64,000 bases of DNA from Magnolia sinica (lineage: Eukaryota; Streptophyta; Magnoliopsida; Magnoliales; Magnoliaceae), in assembly GCF_029962835.1 (NCBI RefSeq), contig NC_080582.1, forward strand, positions 76,442,177 through 76,506,176, read 5' to 3'. Positions 1 through 62,947 of this stretch are shown one piece after another. The position numbers and the translations under genes are program-made. Every line of letters starts with the position of its first letter. The first letter of the stretch is position 1. The notes below the pieces were generated by a model. The model ran no database searches and was not told where the DNA came from. It was given only the letters and a program-made list of their open reading frames with translations.

Positions 1-467
1 TATCTCCAAGGATGCTCTTCTTCATGGAGTAGAGGTAACATACACCACCTTTTTTGTCAACTTGTATGTTTCTTGCATGAATGAAATTCAGGAACTGATC
101 ACACGCTTGTATGTTGCCATTGCTATCTTTTCCGGAAGAGGTGCAAACTGAACTTGCATGAGACTCTCACACTTGCCAACTGGAAAACACGTGCAGCTCC
201 CCAAGCTGCTCATTAGGAGGTCCCACTGTGTGAATGAATCCCTTGCCCAAAAGGTGCTGCCAGTTTGGGTGGGCTCCACATAACCGATTTTGTTATTTAT
301 CAAGGATTGTGATTCCTGAGGGTTTGTTGTGTTTGTTCAGTGTGGGAGTCTTTTGAGCCGTGTTGTATTTTGTTTTTCTTTTTGTTTTGTCTTTCTTTTT
401 CTTTTTTGTCTGTTGCTGCTTTCCTGCTTTTTGGGTCAGTGAGTTAAGTTTTCAGGTTTTTAAAAGA

Positions 468-2473: not shown

Positions 2474-3104
2474 GGAGTTTACTTTGTGGTGTTTGCTCCA
2501 TTTGCTCTTAGCTCTTAATTCTGGCCCAAGCTTGGAGTTGAAGATTTTAGCTGGAACAGCTTCGTTGGTGCAACGGCTCACTGAGGGAAATGTATATTAA
2601 TTTCCTACTCTGTCACCAATTTTGTAGGGCTAAGGGACATGGTTCAGATATTCAAGAAAGAGCGGTTCAATGCGGGGTTAAAAAAAAAAAAAAAATCTTT
2701 TTCTTGATTTTATTTTTATTTTTTTCCCATTTTGAATGAGCTGTAAAGGGAACTGCTTGTTTTATGAAGATGCTACTACAGAAAATGTGTAACTGTATCT
2801 GATTAGTGAGAAGCTGGCAAGTATTCTATGAGTAGGGCCTACCTTTCAGGGATGCATAACAATCATCTGATGTCCCCACATTGGATATGGCAATTCTACA
2901 AAATGATCCCCTATGAGATTATCCTTGCCATCTTATTGCCGGTGGATCAAATGACATGAAGTTTTGATTGATAAGATGAGGGAGGGTGTGAAAACAGCTA
3001 GATTTATGAAGAGATGCTTTAGAACCTGAAGGATTTTAAATTAGTTGGACTAAAACAGAGTATATGGAGTGCAATTTTAGTGATGGTCAGGGCCGTGGTC
3101 ATGG
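2474..3104. other. 3' untranslated region and intergenic DNA
   Basis: AT-rich sequence follows the stop codon of the FAD-oxidoreductase gene. It includes A- and T-rich runs near 2680-2730 consistent with a plant 3' UTR. No clear poly(A) site can be fixed by eye, and no coding region or recognisable repeat is seen up to the SINE fragment at about 3105. Confidence 0.5.
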
Positions 3105-48374: not shown

Positions 48375-51300
48375 AAGATTAATTAATTTCTTGGTCCAAA
48401 TCAGTAATTGCAGAATAATAGTGAAAATCCAATTAGGTGAAATTAGTTCCTATTAGATTTATCAGATCGAATAAATTGATTGAATCTTGACAGATTAATG
48501 AATACGTAAAAGGGCTTGAAAAATATGTATAACTGGTTAATCTTGAAATAATATAAAGGAATGGATCTGCATAATTAGAATCTGAAATAAAGGATCTTCA
48601 GATTTATAATCTAAAATAAAGGATATTAATCTAAAATAAAGGATATGTAGATTTATAATATGAAATAAAGAATCCGCAGGTTATAAATCTGAATTAAAGG
48701 ATCTGCAAATTTATAATTTGAAATAAAGAATTCAGAGGTTATAAAAGTGCTTGACATTATTTTCACCAGAGAGGTGGTGATCAAACGTGTGTGTAAGGTT
48801 CTAATCTTACTAATAAACGGCTTAGTTTTGAAAACTTGGTCCACTAAGTCTGTGGTAAAGGATAACCTCTCACTAAAGCAAGGTTCAAGTCCATGAGACA
48901 CCTTTGTTTATGCACGGAAGATCAGATGCTCGCATATTTTTTGTTGATTTAAAATTAATGGGGAATTGTTGGTTTTAGCTAGATTTTTAAATTATATATC
49001 TTTTATTTTTATTTTTCCTTTAGCTTAACCTCAAGCTTTTGACCCAGTTTTCCGGAGTTATCTGTTTGACCAAGTTTTTCGGAGAGTATGGTTTGGTCGA
49101 ATATTTGGCCCAACGAAAGTATATGTTGGCCGACACCTCTGCGCCAGGTGTCTGCCACGTCACCGTTTGAATTTCCTATAAATGGTAATGCGGAAAAACC
49201 AAAAAAAAAGGAGGAAAAAAAAGGCAATTGGTTTTAAAAGAAAGTTTTTTTTTTTTAATTTACTTTTTATTTTTTATTTTTAAAATGAAAATTCCTATAA
49301 TAAAAAAGGGATATTCTGAGCATAAACCACCGAGAAGTGGTTCTATCCCAAAGACTTTCGTTGCTGGAGGTTTGGATAGTACGTTCAAACCATCCAACGG
49401 GTCGTTAGTCTTCAGGAAAGCGACATGGATCCACGCCTCCACTAAATATATTGCATGTGATTTTGATTTAAACATTCTTTCAGACTTTCGATCCAGGTGC
49501 ATGCCTTCCAACCTATTCTTAAAATTTCTTATCGCATTATCTGGTATTTAATTTATATTTCTCTATTTATCATATTAATTTCTTTGCATCGAGATAACAT
49601 CTCTCTCTCTCTCGCTCTCTCTCTCTCTCTCCCCTCCATTTGCATTGCATGTGCCATGTCGACTAGTACATTGAAAATCAGAATGCAAAATGCAATGTAT
49701 ATATTTGGAATTTTATTTTCATTACTTGGATTATTTTGCATAGCAAAGGTGAAGTGGTTGTGTAGTCCATTAAATTATAGAAGTCACCAGTTATAAACAA
49801 TAATGACGGTGTGTTTGGATATGCTATCAGTTGAATTACAATTATTAGTCTAATAAATTGGAACTAGTCCAATTGTAATTTCCTTTTGTATCGTTTGTAC
49901 TAAAGCATGAGTTCCAAATTGACATTACATTACTTTCAAGCTGGAATTTGAATGAAACTGCAATTTGAGGGCTATTCCTTATTGTTAATGCTATGAATTG
50001 TTGTTAGTTTTGTTCATTTCCTCTTTTTTGTTTATGTGTGCATCAGAATGCAACCAAAGCGTCTGGTAGTGAGTAAAGCTTCAATCGTGGAACAATGTTG
50101 TTGTTGTGTGTGTGTGTTTTTTTTTTTAAGAAAAAAGAAAACAAAAAGAGGCGAGATGAGGAATTGATGACTACATCATTACAAAACATCAATCCAAAAG
50201 GAGTAAAAGGGAAGAAGAAGAAGAAGAAGCAAAACACTCAGAAGAGTGACATTCGAAAGTCTTAAGCGACTTGGCCCATGCAATGGATTTTATTATCCGA
50301 GGGATTTTGAAGAAAGTTTGTTGAAGGTACTGATTTCAAATTTGAAATGATCCATGGGATTTTTAGTCAAGTTATTTAGTGGAGCTCTTGGACCCGACTG
50401 ATCTTATTGAGGAAGCTCGGACCATGTTTTGTTCAGGATGTCCTTGACTCATGTCATGTGCCTAGAGAGGCCAACTCAGAAGTGGACAACCTCACAAAAT
50501 CTGGACCTGCAGGCCTGCGCTGGTCATTTATGATAGAAGATGGTGCATTATTTATTTATTTATTTTTTTCTTTTTGGTAGTGTGTTTCAGCACCTTGCTG
50601 ATAGGCATCCCCCCCCCCCCCCCCCCCCAAGTGTGGATGTCGTTGTTTCCTATTTCAGGGTCTTGTATTTTTTCCGTTTGGAGGGTTTTCTTTTGAATAT
50701 AAGTAGAATATTCATAAAAAAAAGTTATCTAGTGAAGCCTTTTGCTTCAAAGTTCGATGTGCTTTTGGGTTCCAACCCATGGCTCGGTGGTAGACAGTGT
50801 ATTTCAACACTGAGGTCATGAGTTCGAGTGCCCATGTGTTGTGTGCGTGTGAGGGTGTGTATGCAAAAAAAAAAGAAGAAGAGTTATGTGCTTTGGACCT
50901 TACTAAAATGCTTGTTAGTTGAACCTCCATTAGTATCAAAACGATGTAAAAAAGTCTGCATGGTAGGAGCAGACCTGGTTTAAATTTTCTAGGTATGATC
51001 ACAGGTACAGATGAGGTGTTTCAAAGAAACATGGGATTCAAAATACATTATGGCTATTTATGGGTGCTGGATATATGCATACAAATGCTGCATGCATTTA
51101 TTGCCAAGAGTCTTCTAAATTAGAGAGGACTGCTAATTTATCTGGCAATTGAGATAACTAATAGCATGCTCAAATATCTATGGGGAACCATAAAGTCTCA
51201 ACCCTAGGGAGACCAACGGCTCTAACCTTGGAGAAGAAACTTGGTTTTGTATTGCAATAACCAAAATATAATAGCCGCCTTCAAAGAGTCACACACACAA

Positions 51301-54300
51301 CCCTTTTATAAACTCCCCATAAAGTAGTAACTACCCCTAAACAAGCAGTGACTCCTAACAAAGTAGTAACTTACCCCTAAAACAAGCAAAACTCCTCATA
51401 AAGGGTGCATCAATATCTATTTCTTATTTGGGTTCCAGTCCTTGCCTGAGTGGTAGACTCTGAAGAGTTTCAACACGAGGTCTTGGGTTCATAACCCATA
51501 GGTGCTGAAATCCCACTACGGCGTGTGTGGGTGTGTGGCGGGTGCGTGTGTAAAAAAAAATAAAAAAATAAAATCTATTTCTTATCACAAGAATCAGGTG
51601 GTCAGGTGGGCCCCAATTAGCTGAACAAAAGTACAGTCATGAAAAAATTGGCCAAAGTTTTCTAGCTCTCCCACTTATTTCCAATATCATCGCACTCTTA
51701 TCAAGTGGGCCACCTTCATCTCTCGGTAGTAGCATCTACATGGTGAGGTCCACATGATGGATGGCTTGGATATTCCACCGGAATTCCAAGCTGGCATATG
51801 CGATGGTGTGCTTATTAGCTGACTTGTACATGCGTGTGGGCTTACCAAAGCTCAAAATTCCATTCCTTTCTTTTGAAATTGTAACTCCCATTGAGTTTGT
51901 TTTCTTGAAAATCTAGATTTCGCGAAGTTTATCTTAGCATGGTTTTGTTGTTTTGCTTGAATTGTGTGCTGATATTTCACACACGTATCTGGAATGCAAA
52001 TAATATATTGGGTTCAAGTAATTCTACCATTCTTGATTTCAGGTCTCAATACTAATGATTTATTTTTGTACTTGACTCAGCAAGTTCTGACCCATGTCCT
52101 AGAAGAAGCTGGCTACACAAAGGATTCTTTGCTGGTTTTAGCTGACTTTATGAAGGTACTGTTGTACGTCTGTTATGACCACTTCTTTTCTTTTCTTTTA
52201 TTAAAAAAAAAAAAAGATTAATAAAATTTATTAAAACCACAAAACAAGCTATGAAACTAAGGGAGTGACCCACTTGTTACAAGGGAATCGATTACAATTA
52301 CATCATTCACAATCTTCAAAGTATCACTGAATGCAAGTCTCCTAATAGATATAGAGAGCCCTAATTTCTGAAATAGTAAAATTTATTTCTAGAAGCCTGG
52401 GATTAAGGCCTTTCCCACTTAATAGCTCTACGAGAATCCGGTTTGATGATAAAGTTACTCAAGATGGAATTCAAGTAGATACACAGACCGTCCCGAAGTG
52501 CCTAGTTTCTGCCTTGATAGATCCCACCAACTCCACAGGGATCAGAGAAAGCCATTCACTATCTCACCCTTTTCATTTTTCATAATTCCACCAATCATGG
52601 ACGGACACAGTAGAATAGTGAATGGTGAAAACCCATCAAAATTAAGCTTTAAAAATCCCTACCGTGGTGGCTTCCACCAAGGCTTAGTTTTTTTTTTTTT
52701 TTTTTCCCCTTAATCTGTCCACACTGATTGTCTTCCAATTGATGGCTAGGGCAGTCCTAGAAACATCTTTGAATTCCAGCTTCACCATCACCCAACATTC
52801 GGGCGTCACCTTTTTCTTGTTTTTAACACATTCCATGGATGCCACCTTATTTTCAAATACTCTTAAATTTTTTTTTGAATGATAACTGAAAATATTATTG
52901 TAAAAAAACAGAAACAGTGATGAGTAATCATCTCGAATTCAAAGAGCCAAAAAAGAAAAAAGAAGAAAAAAAGAGGAGAGCCAGAAACAAAAACAAGGAG
53001 GCAGCTCTAATTGAACAGAATTCCCCCAAATACAAAAAGACTCGCAAGAGGAAAGACCCAACTGGAAACTCTACCCGTTGAAGATAGGACTAAGCACAGC
53101 CCATTTAAAAACCATGACTTGAATCATACGTTTCCTTCTTTCCACAAACCCCACATGATCGTGAAAGCATCTCACCCCTAGCGCTGCAGAATAGAGAGAA
53201 GAATCACCTCCACACCTCTAAACCATAAGTTTAAAACTCACCGACTTGACTTGAAACTTGGCTGACTCAATACAACAAGATTTCGAGCTGATTCACTGGA
53301 ACCTCAATACCGTAAGGGACTCGGTCTCAATTTGGAAATACCCATTGAGTTGACTCGAATTGGATCACTCACCTTGACCAATAATTGTTTTCTTAAGAAA
53401 AATATGTGGGGTGTGAGAGTCGAACCCCCAAACTCCATGAATTGATGTAATGCTCTTAACTAGCACATCAATTGCTATGTTGTTGCTTGTTTTGCTGTTT
53501 ATAGTTGCTAGCTTGGCTCTCCCTTTCTTTAATAAAACTCCTGTTATCTTTTAAAAAAAGGTTTAAGATATTACCCTTCTAATGTAGGACAATTAACCAC
53601 TTGCTCTAAAAGCTCGACCTGTTAGAGCATGACGAATCAATCCCTTTATTTTATAGCCCAGGCCCCACATTGCATGAGTTAGGACCTCGGCCGAACCCTC
53701 CTCGTGGGCCCCAAATCACATGGGTACCGCCTCACACGTGCCACCTGCCTCACATGGGCCACCCACCCCGAGTGTGTCCCCGCATCTCACAGGCTACCTC
53801 ACTCGAGCCTGGTGTGAAAATGCCTCTGCATTTATCACTCCCGGTGAGGAGTCTCGAACTTGAGACCTCCCGCTCTGATATCACTTTGATGCAGGACAAT
53901 TAACCACTTGCTCTAAAAGCTTGAACTGTTAGAGCATGACGAATCAATCCCTTTATCTTATAGCCTAGGTCCCACATCGCATGGGTTAGGACCTCGGCCG
54001 AACCCCCCTTGTGGGCCCCAAATCACATGAGTATCGCCTCACACGAGCCACCCGCCTCACACGGGTGGGGCCTGCCTCTCACGAGTCACCTACCTCACAC
54101 GGGCCGCCCACCCGAGTGTGTCGCCGCATCCCACAAGCTACCCACTCGAGCTTAGCGTGAAAATGCCCCTGCATTACCTTCCTAATACACACACCCACAC
54201 CCACTTGCAAACAAGCGGGGAAAGAATACAGCGGAAGGAGGGCAACTAGCAATTTACAGCCCGACAAGTGACTTAACAAAAAGTAAGTCAATTTTCAAGT

Positions 54301-56900: not shown

Positions 56901-58995
56901 GGGCTCCCTGCGACATCCGGTGTCAACCAAAGGGACACAACATTATGCAGCTGGTGGAACCGTAGGATGGCAGATCTCTCTTTCTACAGTAACTGTGGTA
57001 GAGAGAGATGTATTGGGACCCATCAAGTGGGCCCTATCACAGATGACCCATGTTTCGAATGTTGGGGAACCGTAGAAGCACACAGAGATGAATCAAGCAA
57101 ATCAAGCAAAGTACTATCAATCACAGAACAAGTTCAAACATAAACAATTCAAATTTTAAGTGAAAAAACCCTTTTAGAAAAAAACCACCGTACAAAGTTC
57201 TGAGTAATGCACTATGAAAGTAGAAATTACAAGAAATAGTGTTATTGGTTCGACTAAGTCTTGAATTCACTTCACAAGCCCTAGCTATGCCCTTGAAGCC
57301 CTGATGAATGAATTAGAAAGCTTTAGAACTCTTCTCATCTCTCCCAAATTTCGATTACACCTTATATATATAACACCATATAGTATCACAATCGGAATAG
57401 GAAACAAATCCCGCACTTACATAATTTTGCACGCACTTGATGGGACCATGATATGTTGATGGCATCGACGATCTATCGATGGCATTGAACACCTTCGATA
57501 ACGTCAAGTGTGACATCAAGTGGTCTCTTGATTGCAGTGATAAACCCTCTTGTTTACAGATTTAAGACATCAACAACGTCAAAACCATATCTTTTTAGCA
57601 ACACTTCTCTCTTAACTCTTCAACTCTGAACATTGGTGTTTTAACTCTTTCATTTTCCTCTGTCGGTTCATCCCATCCATATATTTTAAACCACTTGCCT
57701 TCAGTAGGGGTGACTAGATGGATGGACCCGATTCATATCAGCAGTTTGCACCTCGCTGGATGCTGCAAACCGTCCAACGTACACGTGGCATACATTCACA
57801 CCGATCTTGATCATCCAGGGTTGTCGCCCCCACTATGGATTAAGCTTAGCCCGAAAATCACACTGATTGCAAAGTTCTAATCAATGAAATTTCATTCTGG
57901 TCCATCCATACTAGAGCCCATGATTTGGATGGTTCAGATAAGGCGTGCTGTAAGATCTCATTGTTCATTAATGTTTCCACAGGCCAATGCTGGTGGAGTA
58001 CTCAATAAGTATACAGGGGAGATGTGTCCACCGTTGGAGTTCTGTAGAGATGTATCAATCAGGGCTGTCCATCAAGTGGACCCTAACATGGATGGCTTAT
58101 ATTTCAAGAAATCCCCTCAATAGACAATCATATCCATCTTCATCTTCCACAGCGCTAGGTTGTAGGGCAATCTTTCTGATATTTTACTTCTATTTTGGAC
58201 CACACATTATTTTATTTCAACCATCCATCTATCATGGTCAACATAATCGGATCATCATCATGCTGGGGAAATAATGTTAATCATCTATATATTATTATTA
58301 TTTTAATTTTTTCCATTCGAATTTGGGCCACTGGCTATTATACTTTTAACCATCCATTTGTGAGTCATTAATTGTATGGTTAGGATTGCTCGAACAGTGT
58401 AACACTAAGGATATACTCCATCCACAATGGAACCCACAATTTGGATGGTTCGGATAGCTTTAAATCAGTGTTATAGGGGAGGAGATGGTCATCACATTTT
58501 ATTTTTTTTAAGAAGGTGCAAACCTAGCACGAGCCTAGCTAGCCATCTAAATCAGTGTAATTTCATCCGTTTTGAAGCCGGAGGATTTTGTGCAAATGCC
58601 GCCATGGTTTGGTGATATGCGTCTGTCTGACGGGCCCCACCATGGATGAGCCATTCTCTAGAGGTCAACTTGATAGGATTATCTTAAAATTTGAGGTGAA
58701 ATTTGCGGTGATCGGGTGGATGGGATCTTCCGGTCAGTGCAATTTGTCTTTATGAACGGTGGATGCCCACCAGGTCAACGGTGGATATGCCATGGAGATG
58801 AAAATTGCAATGGTCACAGATTGGTTATTCCAATTTGCAAGTTAACGAATTATTATTGGTGCGGATCATGCGATCAATGCAACTGTTGGGCTTGGCTATT
58901 TGAAAATCAACGGTGAGATTGGACCAATCCGCGTACGCCACCTGTCACATTGACCGCATTAACGCATAGGTGAGCTGGTGATCCCTACACCCGCC
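56901..58995. other. Intergenic DNA, no gene recognised
   Basis: No frame with a recognisable domain. Scattered short phrases (CCATCCA, TTTGGATGGTTCGGAT, GGTTAGGATTGCTCGA near 58380) match the repeat unit at 7530-8380, so part of it is old dispersed repeat. Confidence 0.4.
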
Positions 58996-61551: not shown

Positions 61552-61674
61552 GATCATTACTCTCGCCTCAGCGGTGGAATCATGGGACTTTCAACACGAG
61601 GTCATGGGTTCGAGTATCAATTGTGGTGAAATTCCATTATGGTGTGAGACTGGGTAAAATAAATAAATAAATAA
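61552..61674 (+). mobile_element. tRNA-derived SINE
   Basis: 123 bp with box A-like CGCCTCAGCGGTGGAATC and box B-like ATGGGTTCGAGTATC, then TTGTGGTGAAATTCCA, and an (AAAT)n tail. Perfect 16-bp target-site duplication ATAAATGTTTGACATG (61536-61551, 61675-61690). Confidence 0.88.
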
Positions 61675-61699
61675 ATAAATGTTTGACATGCCTATTGAT

Positions 61700-62150
61700 A
61701 AGGCTATCTTTGATGGACACTACCAATATGATGTATATGTTGGATGCACATCTGTTTTTCCAAATCATTGTAGGACATGAGCGCAATAATAAGACAGATA
61801 CAAATCTTTAGCAGACCTCACTGCAAGACTCACCATTAAAAACTTCCTAAGGCTCATTGTAATATTTATTTGCCATCTAACTTGTCCATTAGGTCACACA
61901 CGGATCTTGAAGAAGGGAAAAAACAAACATTGCTTCATCCAAAACTTGTGGCCCTCAAGAAATTTTTAATGGCATGGGTTCAATCACCACGGTCTCCTAT
62001 AGTGTGGTCCACGTGCATTTTATCTAACTCATTTTTGTGCTCCTGCTCTAAAGCAGAGCTGTAAAAATGGATGGATGGTGTGGATAAAATACATCCTGGT
62101 GGGGCCAACCGAGCACCATCCAGTAGCATCAGTAGGCAATTTGCCTCTAT
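61700..62150. mobile_element. Foldback MITE copy
   Basis: It has the family's internal phrases and the right end GGTGGGGCC..CAGTAGGCAATTTGCC. The 13-bp repeat CTATCTTTGATGG stands at 61704-61716 and again at about 62146-62158. The left arm lacks the outer part that is present on the right. Confidence 0.6.
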
Positions 62151-62190
62151 CTTTGATGGCTTGGGTGGAGTAACGCATGGGAGCCAAGCT

Positions 62191-62289
62191 TTATTTTTTA
62201 TTTTTTTAACCCCCACACCCACACCACATGGGCACTCGATCATATGATCTTTGAAACAGCCTGTCTACCATTGGGCCATGAAGCTGGAC
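62191..62289 (-). mobile_element. SINE, fused to a U6 pseudogene
   Basis: On the minus strand it reads GTCCAGCTTCATGGCCCAAT, GGTAGACAGG, GATCGAGTGCCCATGTGG, then GT-rich text and an A-rich tail (62191-62207 as T on the plus strand). Compared with the full-length copy at 51428 it lacks only a few 5' bases. Its 5' end touches the 3' end of the U6 sequence at about 62289/62290, in the same orientation. Confidence 0.8.
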
Positions 62290-62385
62290 TTAAAATTTGG
62301 ACAATTTCTTGATTTGTTCATGTCATTCTTGTGCAGTGGCCATGCTAATCTTCTTTGTATCCTTCAATATTTGACTTGAAAGGGA
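62290..62385 (-). pseudogene. U6 spliceosomal snRNA pseudogene
   Basis: The minus strand reads GATACAAAGAAGATTAGCAT, GGCCACTGCACAAGAATGAC, ATGAACAAATCAAGAAATTG, TCCAAATTTT. Against plant U6 from AGAGAAGATTAGC to TCCAAATTTT I count eight differences in 65 positions. The 5' stem (CCCTTTCAAGTCAAATATTG) is more decayed. The catalytic-core ACAGAGA box reads ACAAAGA, so it is a pseudogene. There is no plant U6 promoter (USE plus TATA) upstream that I can see. Confidence 0.88.
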
Positions 62386-62947
62386 GCAGGTGGTGGCCTA
62401 TGGGATTTGAAAAAAAGGATACTTACTCCCGGCTTAGGCTGAATCACTTGATAGGTAGCTCTTTATATATATCATGATCCAGAACCTCTTTCAGATAATT
62501 ATGTAACATTTAATGGCTTTTTTTTTTTTTTTTTCCTTCTTACTTTATAATGCTTTTATAAAGATAACCAATCTAAATATGGTTATTAACTATTGAGTTT
62601 ACTGAGTCATCCTCAAAAAAAAGTTTATTGAGTCGAATCAGGTCGAGTCTGCCAGTTGACCCAACCCAAATGAAAATTGAGTCTAGAGTTGGAGTTTTCA
62701 AGTTTTTAAAACCATCCAATGGGTCAAACTATAGGGCCCACGCTTGGGCTAGTAAATAGGGCCGGAGTGCGAGACTGGGCTTAAAATTAGGCCCGTTTGC
62801 CCAGGCTAGGATCGATGCAGACCAATAATGAATGGTCCAGCTTGGTCTGTCAGCCCAGTCGAATGATTTAATGGGCCATAGTTATACCGAAAAAAGAATG
62901 ACGGTTTAAAGGAACTTGTGAGAATGGCCAGCTGGTGATGGCCATGG

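What the first reader, a model, noticed from the sequence alone, without database searches (positions are those of the whole stretch)
62191..62385. U6 snRNA-SINE chimera
A U6 pseudogene is joined, 3' end to 5' end and in the same orientation, to a SINE that is full length except for a few bases. The compound ends in the SINE's A-rich tail. In mammals, U6-L1 chimeras arise when reverse transcriptase switches from L1 RNA to U6 RNA during target-primed synthesis. The same process with a plant SINE template would explain this join. A plant U6-SINE chimera is unfamiliar to me. A 6-bp repeat GGGAGC (62179-62184, 62382-62387) could be the remains of a target-site duplication but is weak. Two independent neighbouring insertions are the alternative.
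Basis: partly seen in the sequence, partly recalled or inferred. Interest (0 to 1): 0.78.

Follow-up and report, generated by a model that had tools for sequence, protein, structure and literature searches.

The report
Plant U6 RNA–SINE fusion insertion
In what looks like a plant genome, a dead copy of a splicing RNA (U6) is fused end to end with a small jumping element, and sister fusions elsewhere in the same genome suggest that such pairs are inserted in one step, probably when the copying enzyme hops from one RNA to the other, as is described in animals.

Summary
On the minus strand (62387→62190) a U6 pseudogene runs, same orientation and without a clear gap, into a tRNA-type SINE that keeps its 5' end and A-rich tail. 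The window alone could not separate one insertion from two: the 6-bp outer repeat is weak. The whole genome (1.84 Gb) was held, so I looked for sister joins. Of 47 U6 matches (48 candidates scored), 4 have this SINE family fused downstream (the window's plus three); a junction query found a fifth. Four of five joins put the U6 3' end on the SINE 5' end, two with an identical joint; one joins a 3'-truncated U6 to a 5'-truncated SINE. Two of five are flanked, at the U6 5' end and the SINE tail, by likely target-site duplications (9 of 10 and 12 of 13 bp; p 0.023 and 0.0005); three are not. None of five has one around the SINE alone, while 6 of 10 solo SINEs do at p<0.05. I read them as single-event chimeras, most likely template jumping from SINE RNA to U6 RNA; pre-ligated RNA is the main rival. 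Such chimeras are described in platypus and lizard; the searches named below listed no plant case. The window copy's own duplication is unproven.

The parts
62292..62387 (-). U6 snRNA pseudogene (5' end about 62387 or 62382, 3' T-run 62295-62292); 70 of 81 aligned columns identical to the genome's own U6 over U6 23-102; first 22 nt degenerate; no upstream element of the U6-gene type found
62190..62293 (-). tRNA-type SINE with its 5' end (TT at 62293-62292 can belong to U6 or to the SINE), a short internal gap, and A-rich tail within 62209-62190
62289..62295 (-). U6/SINE joint: U6 TTTT followed by AAG of the SINE start
62382..62387 (.). GGGAGC, candidate outer repeat at the U6 5' end, which it overlaps
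   Evidence: not significant by shuffle
62179..62184 (.). GGGAGC, candidate outer repeat 5 nt beyond the A-rich tail

Best explanation
The compound is a single retrotransposition event. A LINE reverse transcriptase, working on a SINE RNA by target-primed reverse transcription, copied the SINE from its A-rich tail to its 5' end, jumped onto the 3' U-run of a U6 snRNA and copied U6 to or near its 5' end; the joined cDNA was then sealed into the target. Shown: the compound structure, four sister compounds in the same genome, likely duplications around the whole compound in two of them, and no detectable duplication around the SINE alone in any of the five. Inferred: the LINE enzyme, the jump itself (rather than an already joined RNA), and the transfer from the sister loci to the old window copy.
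For: 4 of 47 U6 matches carry this SINE family fused downstream in the same orientation, a fifth came from a junction query. 4 of 5 joints are U6 3' end to SINE 5' end. L010: U6 98/102 identical to a U6 gene of the genome, no upstream element, flanked by GCCCTAAGGG/GCCCCAAGGG abutting U6 base 1 and the tail (p 0.023; 0.010). L034: AGTTGGTCCACTA/AGTCGGTCCACTA abutting U6 base 1 and 1 nt from the tail (p 0.0005; 0.003), with a joint inside both elements. SINE-alone duplication: 0 of 5 chimeras (p 0.4965 to 0.9975) against 6 of 10 solo SINEs at p<0.05. Chance of 2 or more end-to-end joins among the 33 other U6 loci without the element is about 6e-5 even at the window's high SINE density. None of the 13 U6 loci with an upstream element at -62 to -68 has a SINE match in the 3' flank searched. 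Precedent in animals and a fungus: PMC4476161, PMC2104539.
Against: 3 of 5 compounds, the window's included, show no significant outer duplication. The window's 6-bp repeat overlaps the U6 5' end. The test gave p of 0.04 or less at 5 of 47 loci, among them a promoter-bearing locus (L012) and an A-run artefact (L043), so L010's p alone is modest. The AA at the window joint could be extra bases; PMC4476161 reads an extra adenine without duplication in one U6atac/Alu pair as two events. L034 joins inside U6, which PMC4476161 says has never been observed in U6/L1 chimeras. L010 and L035 share SINE subfamily and joint, so their independence is not proven. Only 48 U6 candidates were scored; the census is a lower bound.
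Confidence: 0.7

Rival explanations
1. RNA ligation first: U6 RNA (3' end) was ligated to the 5' end of a SINE RNA, and the joined RNA was copied and inserted in one event.
For: Four of five joints are end to end, which ligation would give; ligation is named as an alternative for U6/LINE-1 chimeras in PMC13174262 (passages seen).
Against: L034 joins a point inside U6 to a point inside the SINE, which would need RNA fragments. A SINE primary transcript should carry a 5' triphosphate, a poor ligation substrate (general knowledge, not tested). The T's shared at the joints would fit a short annealing step but prove nothing.
Confidence: 0.16
2. Two independent neighbouring insertions: a U6 pseudogene first, then a SINE landing at its 3' end.
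For: The window copy alone cannot exclude it: weak outer repeat and possible extra AA at the joint. Some solo SINEs too show no duplication (C and L069). A T-rich U6 end is a plausible target (not tested).
Against: No SINE-only duplication in 5 of 5 compounds. For the window the SINE-alone score was 3, or 4 at some boundaries; a 10-16 bp duplication diverged 14% per copy scores 3 or less in 0.6-4% of simulations, and 3-9% at 20%. Repeated same-orientation joins within a few nt are not expected. L010 has a young U6 and an outer duplication only.
Confidence: 0.09
3. A U6 gene with a SINE just downstream was co-transcribed and the read-through RNA was retroposed, perhaps repeatedly (a U6-headed SINE lineage).
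For: L010 and L035 share joint and SINE subfamily.
Against: No scored U6 locus with an upstream element has a SINE match downstream. U6 extent and identity differ among the five: L010 98/102, window 70/81, L068 only U6 63-101, L034 only U6 1-71. SINE heads differ by eye.
Confidence: 0.05

Closest known systems
U6-SINE chimeras of platypus (Mon-1) and Anolis (six U6-AnolisSINE2), PMC4476161 (sections 6 and 10 read, other passages seen)
   Same: U6 with a SINE, put down there to template switching; the platypus repeats are described as flanked by target-site duplications.
   Different: Those SINEs are believed to be mobilised by L2-clade LINEs, which read a specific 3' sequence; here the SINE ends in an A-rich tail and the host looks like a plant. 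The platypus U6-L2 chimeras mostly have a 5'-truncated U6 and small duplications.
Human U6/L1, U6/Alu and U6atac/Alu chimeras (PMC4476161 sections as above; PMC13174262 passages)
   Same: Direct join of U6 upstream of a retroelement, same orientation; one U6atac/Alu has a 14-base duplication.
   Different: U6/Alu is called very rare there; internal joints in U6 are said never to occur in U6/L1, while L034 has one. Four of our five joints sit at the SINE 5' end.
WEIRD-MgSINE bipartite chimera of Magnaporthe grisea (PMC2104539; background section and part 1 of 2 of the results section read)
   Same: Cellular RNA plus SINE inside one duplication (12 bp there).
   Different: Partner RNA is WEIRD, not U6; the SINE there is 5'-truncated; a fungus.
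Sadhu retroposons of Arabidopsis (PMC2848041, passages seen)
   Same: Plant retroposons whose odd ends are put down to template switching.
   Different: No snRNA partner mentioned ('snrna' 0 times in the main text).

Membership tests
snRNA/non-LTR chimera (Doucet Group IV) | snRNA directly joined, same orientation, 5' of a non-LTR element | tested here: met
   window and four sister loci
snRNA/non-LTR chimera (Doucet Group IV) | compound flanked by one target-site duplication | tested here: inconclusive
   L010 (p 0.023) and L034 (p 0.0005), 2 of 5; window only 6 bp, p 0.15-0.45; none in L035, L068
snRNA/non-LTR chimera (Doucet Group IV) | no duplication around the retroelement alone | tested here: met
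   0 of 5 (p 0.4965 to 0.9975)
Bipartite chimera as described by Gogvadze (mammal/fungus) | 5' part is a full-length copy of the cellular RNA | tested here: inconclusive
   L010 U6 1-102; window 23-102 with a degenerate 5' end; L034 1-71; L035 33-102 by alignment, its 5' part poor; L068 63-101
Bipartite chimera as described by Gogvadze (mammal/fungus) | 3' part is 5'-truncated, at random sites | tested here: not met
   SINE 5' end kept in 4 of 5; truncated only in L034. So the window copy is not filed under that strict description; PMC4476161 says only that LINEs are usually truncated
SINE | dispersed copies, A-rich tail, own target-site duplications | tested here: met
   6 copies in the window; 6 of 10 tested solo copies with a duplication at p<0.05
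tRNA-derived SINE | tRNA-related head with working Pol III A and B boxes | not tested
   box-like motifs seen by eye only; ARAGORN finds no tRNA in the window
U6 gene | upstream element TCCCACATCG (recalled) near -63 | tested here: not met
   13 of 47 loci have it at -62 to -68 with up to 2 mismatches; none of the four chimeras in that set (L068 was not in it)
LINE-made insertion | carried out by an identified LINE of this genome | not tested
   no LINE search was made

The most novel reading that the evidence does not exclude
In this plant, the LINE enzyme that moves SINEs habitually jumps end to end from the 5' end of SINE RNA onto the U-run of U6 RNA, so a noticeable share of U6 pseudogenes (4 of the 34 scored loci without the upstream element) are U6-SINE chimeras. 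U6 capture by template jumping would then be shared by plant and animal LINEs, and a possible source of new SINE heads.
Probability: 0.5. Interest if true: 0.65.

Novelty: new variant of a known kind. Interest (0 to 1): 0.52.

Why it matters
U6 chimeras are a natural record of template jumping by LINE reverse transcriptases. The papers seen here describe them from mammals and a lizard, and with another RNA from a fungus. Several in one plant-like genome, two with likely duplications, would extend the behaviour to plants. Because four of five joints lie at the SINE 5' end rather than at random points, they may help to separate end-to-end jumping from mid-template switching, and they show a route by which a SINE could gain a new small-RNA head.

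Tried and rejected
Chance adjacency was tested by SINE density: 2 SINE matches in 20 arbitrarily chosen 10-kb pieces (200 kb, both in L050; model s8) against 6 in the 64-kb window (model s4). A working U6 gene was rejected: no upstream element. An empty site inside a repeat copy was sought and not found: the left flank is a multicopy repeat that ends near 62117, short of the insertion. Viral-contig scans for the SINE core and for U6 gave 0. The pattern GGTCCAAATTTTTTGGGTYC with up to 2 mismatches gave 37 places (reversed control 15): L010 and L035 are real, 20 others that I fetched hold no SINE match, 15 were not fetched. The junction query (87 candidates, 40 scored, 40 matches) gave 12 places outside the 47 U6 loci; I fetched 8 of the 12: one is a chimera (L068) and 7 are SINEs without U6; C18:20329043, C12:79831486, C2:128221296 and C2:16847974 were not fetched. 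A 95-nt U6 query (35 candidates, 36 matches) gave no locus outside the 47. A query with the window-type SINE head and a looser junction pattern did not complete, so chimeras with that subfamily may be missed. E (a fragment) and L073 (3'-incomplete) were left out of the duplication test; its boundaries were set by eye and L069-L075 were picked by likeness to the junction query, not at random. In one search six promoter-bearing loci (L001-L003, L006-L008) lay reversed, so only about 200 nt of their 3' flank was searched, against about 400 nt for the others.

Full report
What is there. On the minus strand the window holds a U6 snRNA pseudogene joined to a SINE (62387 to 62190). Rfam U6 scores 64.3 bits at 62399-62291 minus, above its gathering score of 44, and is the only gathering-level Rfam match in the window. 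Against the genome's own U6 the local alignment covers U6 23-102 with 70 of 81 columns identical; the 3' end CCAAATTTT is intact. No upstream element of the U6-gene type lies before it; 13 of 47 U6 loci have one at -62 to -68. So it reads as a retroposed pseudogene, not a gene.

The SINE. A profile from four window copies finds six copies in the window: plus strand near 50769, 61554, 62952, 51433, a fragment at 3095, and the one joined to U6. Copies A, B and D have clear target-site duplications. A, C and D read TTGGGTTC at the start, and L075, from elsewhere in the genome, reads TGGGTCC right after its duplication. The SINE 5' end is therefore (T)TGGGTYC. The window joint reads CCAAATTTTAAGTCC: U6 T-run, then the SINE start with AA where the others have GG. 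Whether AA is mutated GG or two extra bases cannot be decided from one copy.

The window alone is not decisive. The outer GGGAGC repeat has p 0.12-0.33 against random window pairs and 0.15-0.45 by shuffle; with the added demand that it abut the boundary, about 0.009. It overlaps the U6 5' end. The SINE alone scores 3, or 4 at some boundary choices. At 14% divergence per copy a real 10-16 bp duplication scores 3 or less in 0.6-4% of simulations, at 20% in 3-9%. The window SINE differs from a leave-one-out consensus at 17 of 73 positions, which includes subfamily differences, so the two parts cannot be dated against each other.

Sister loci. The genome was held (1.84 Gb, 127 contigs; the window is C10:76442177-76506176); U6 gave 47 matches with 48 candidates scored. 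I had flanks of all 47. The SINE profile matches right after U6 in 4 of 47: the window's (L047, whose SINE is in the profile), L010, L035 and L034. A 100-nt junction query, with 40 of 87 candidates scored, had L010 and L035 on top and gave a new one, L068, at C17:71076652. Joints: L010 and L035 share AAATTTTTTGGGTCC; L068 AAATTTCTAGGTCCC; window AAATTTTAAGTCC; L034 joins U6 near position 71 (AAGGATGA) to the SINE body at TTTCGAGTACCC.

Duplications. Around the compound: L010 GCCCTAAGGG/GCCCCAAGGG, p 0.023, and L034 AGTTGGTCCACTA/AGTCGGTCCACTA, p 0.0005, each abutting the first base of U6 and lying 0-1 nt after the tail. L035, L068 and the window show none at p<0.05. Around the SINE alone: none in 5 of 5 (p 0.4965 to 0.9975). 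Solo controls, 10 tested: A, B, D, L070, L074 and L075 reach p<0.05; L072 is at 0.06; L071 reaches it only if 12 nt before the SINE are counted in; C and L069 show none. If 6 in 10 is the detection rate, 0 of 5 has a chance of about 0.01 (my arithmetic). Boundaries were set by eye, and the L069-L075 controls were picked by likeness to the query. A looser automatic test over 47 loci gave p of 0.04 or less at five: L034 (0.003), L019 (0.007), L010 (0.010), L012 (0.040) and L043 (0.040); L012 has a promoter element and L043 is an A-run, so about two such values are expected by chance. There L035 had 0.257 and the window 0.83.

An outer duplication alone would not exclude a SINE that landed inside a U6 pseudogene's tail, because it would lie inside the outer repeat too. 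The missing SINE-only duplication is what speaks against that, and L010 is young enough (U6 98 of 102 identical) for it to count. In L034 both elements are cut at the joint, which side-by-side insertions would not produce by themselves.

Chance. 20 arbitrarily chosen 10-kb pieces held 2 SINE matches. With 33 loci besides the window's that lack the upstream element, 7 allowed positions and one orientation, 0.001 joins are expected, or 0.011 at the window's density; two (L010, L035) were seen, p 7e-7 to 6e-5. A preference for T-rich targets would raise this, and the two may share a source.

Mechanism. Best supported: target-primed reverse transcription of SINE RNA to its 5' end, a jump to the U6 U-run, copying of U6, integration. 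Shown: structure, recurrence, likely duplications in two. Inferred: enzyme, jump, and extension to the window copy. Pre-ligated RNA is the main rival. A read-through parent locus is less likely: none of the 13 U6 loci with an upstream element has a SINE match in the 3' flank searched (about 200 nt in six, about 400 nt in seven).

What is known. PMC4476161 (sections 6 and 10 read; other passages seen): U6 chimeras with Mon-1 in platypus, six with AnolisSINE2, U6atac/Alu in human, put down to template switching; internal joints in U6 are said never to occur in U6/L1, so L034 is unusual. PMC2104539 (background and part 1 of 2 of the results read): WEIRD-MgSINE in a fungus. PMC13174262 (passages): U6/LINE-1, with ligation as an alternative. 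PMC2848041 (passages): template switching in Arabidopsis Sadhu, citing end-to-end jumping by the R2 enzyme (reference title only). PMC3747384 (passages): plant L1 and relaxed 3' recognition. PMC8825457: the terms snRNA, chimer and template switch do not occur. Searches listed no title on a plant U6-SINE chimera; only the first 20 of 50, 20 of 90 and 15 of 184 papers were shown in 12, 13 and 61, the library lacks most subscription papers, and 'U6' alone could not be searched.

Limits. The U6 census is a lower bound, and the window-type SINE query did not complete.

Odds.

Noticed in passing
L071 (C12:3370519-3370958): A SINE without U6 is preceded, inside its duplication, by about 12 extra nt ending in six T's (TATAAATTTTTT); it may be a short capture of another RNA that ends in U's.
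   Followed up: partly
window 61552-61677 and about 51428-51570, plus strand: Two more SINE copies with target-site duplications: 16 of 16 and 15 of 16 bp.
   Followed up: yes
window 61830-62117: Left of the insertion lies a multicopy repeat with matches on both strands across the window.
   Followed up: no
L019 (C17:72810621-72811323): A 3'-truncated U6 pseudogene with a likely duplication of its own (TAGTTATCAAATGG/TACTTACCAAATGG, p 0.007) and no SINE match.
   Followed up: partly
L032 and L043: U6 copies that run from about position 98 straight into a long A-run, like the polyadenylated U6 pseudogenes described in mammals.
   Followed up: no
L026 and L045 (C7:5206951-5207210): Two degenerate U6 copies about 160 bp apart in the same orientation.
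   Followed up: no
window 58223-58327, minus strand: Sub-threshold U6-like match, 20.9 bits against a gathering score of 44, E 0.21; probably chance.
   Followed up: no
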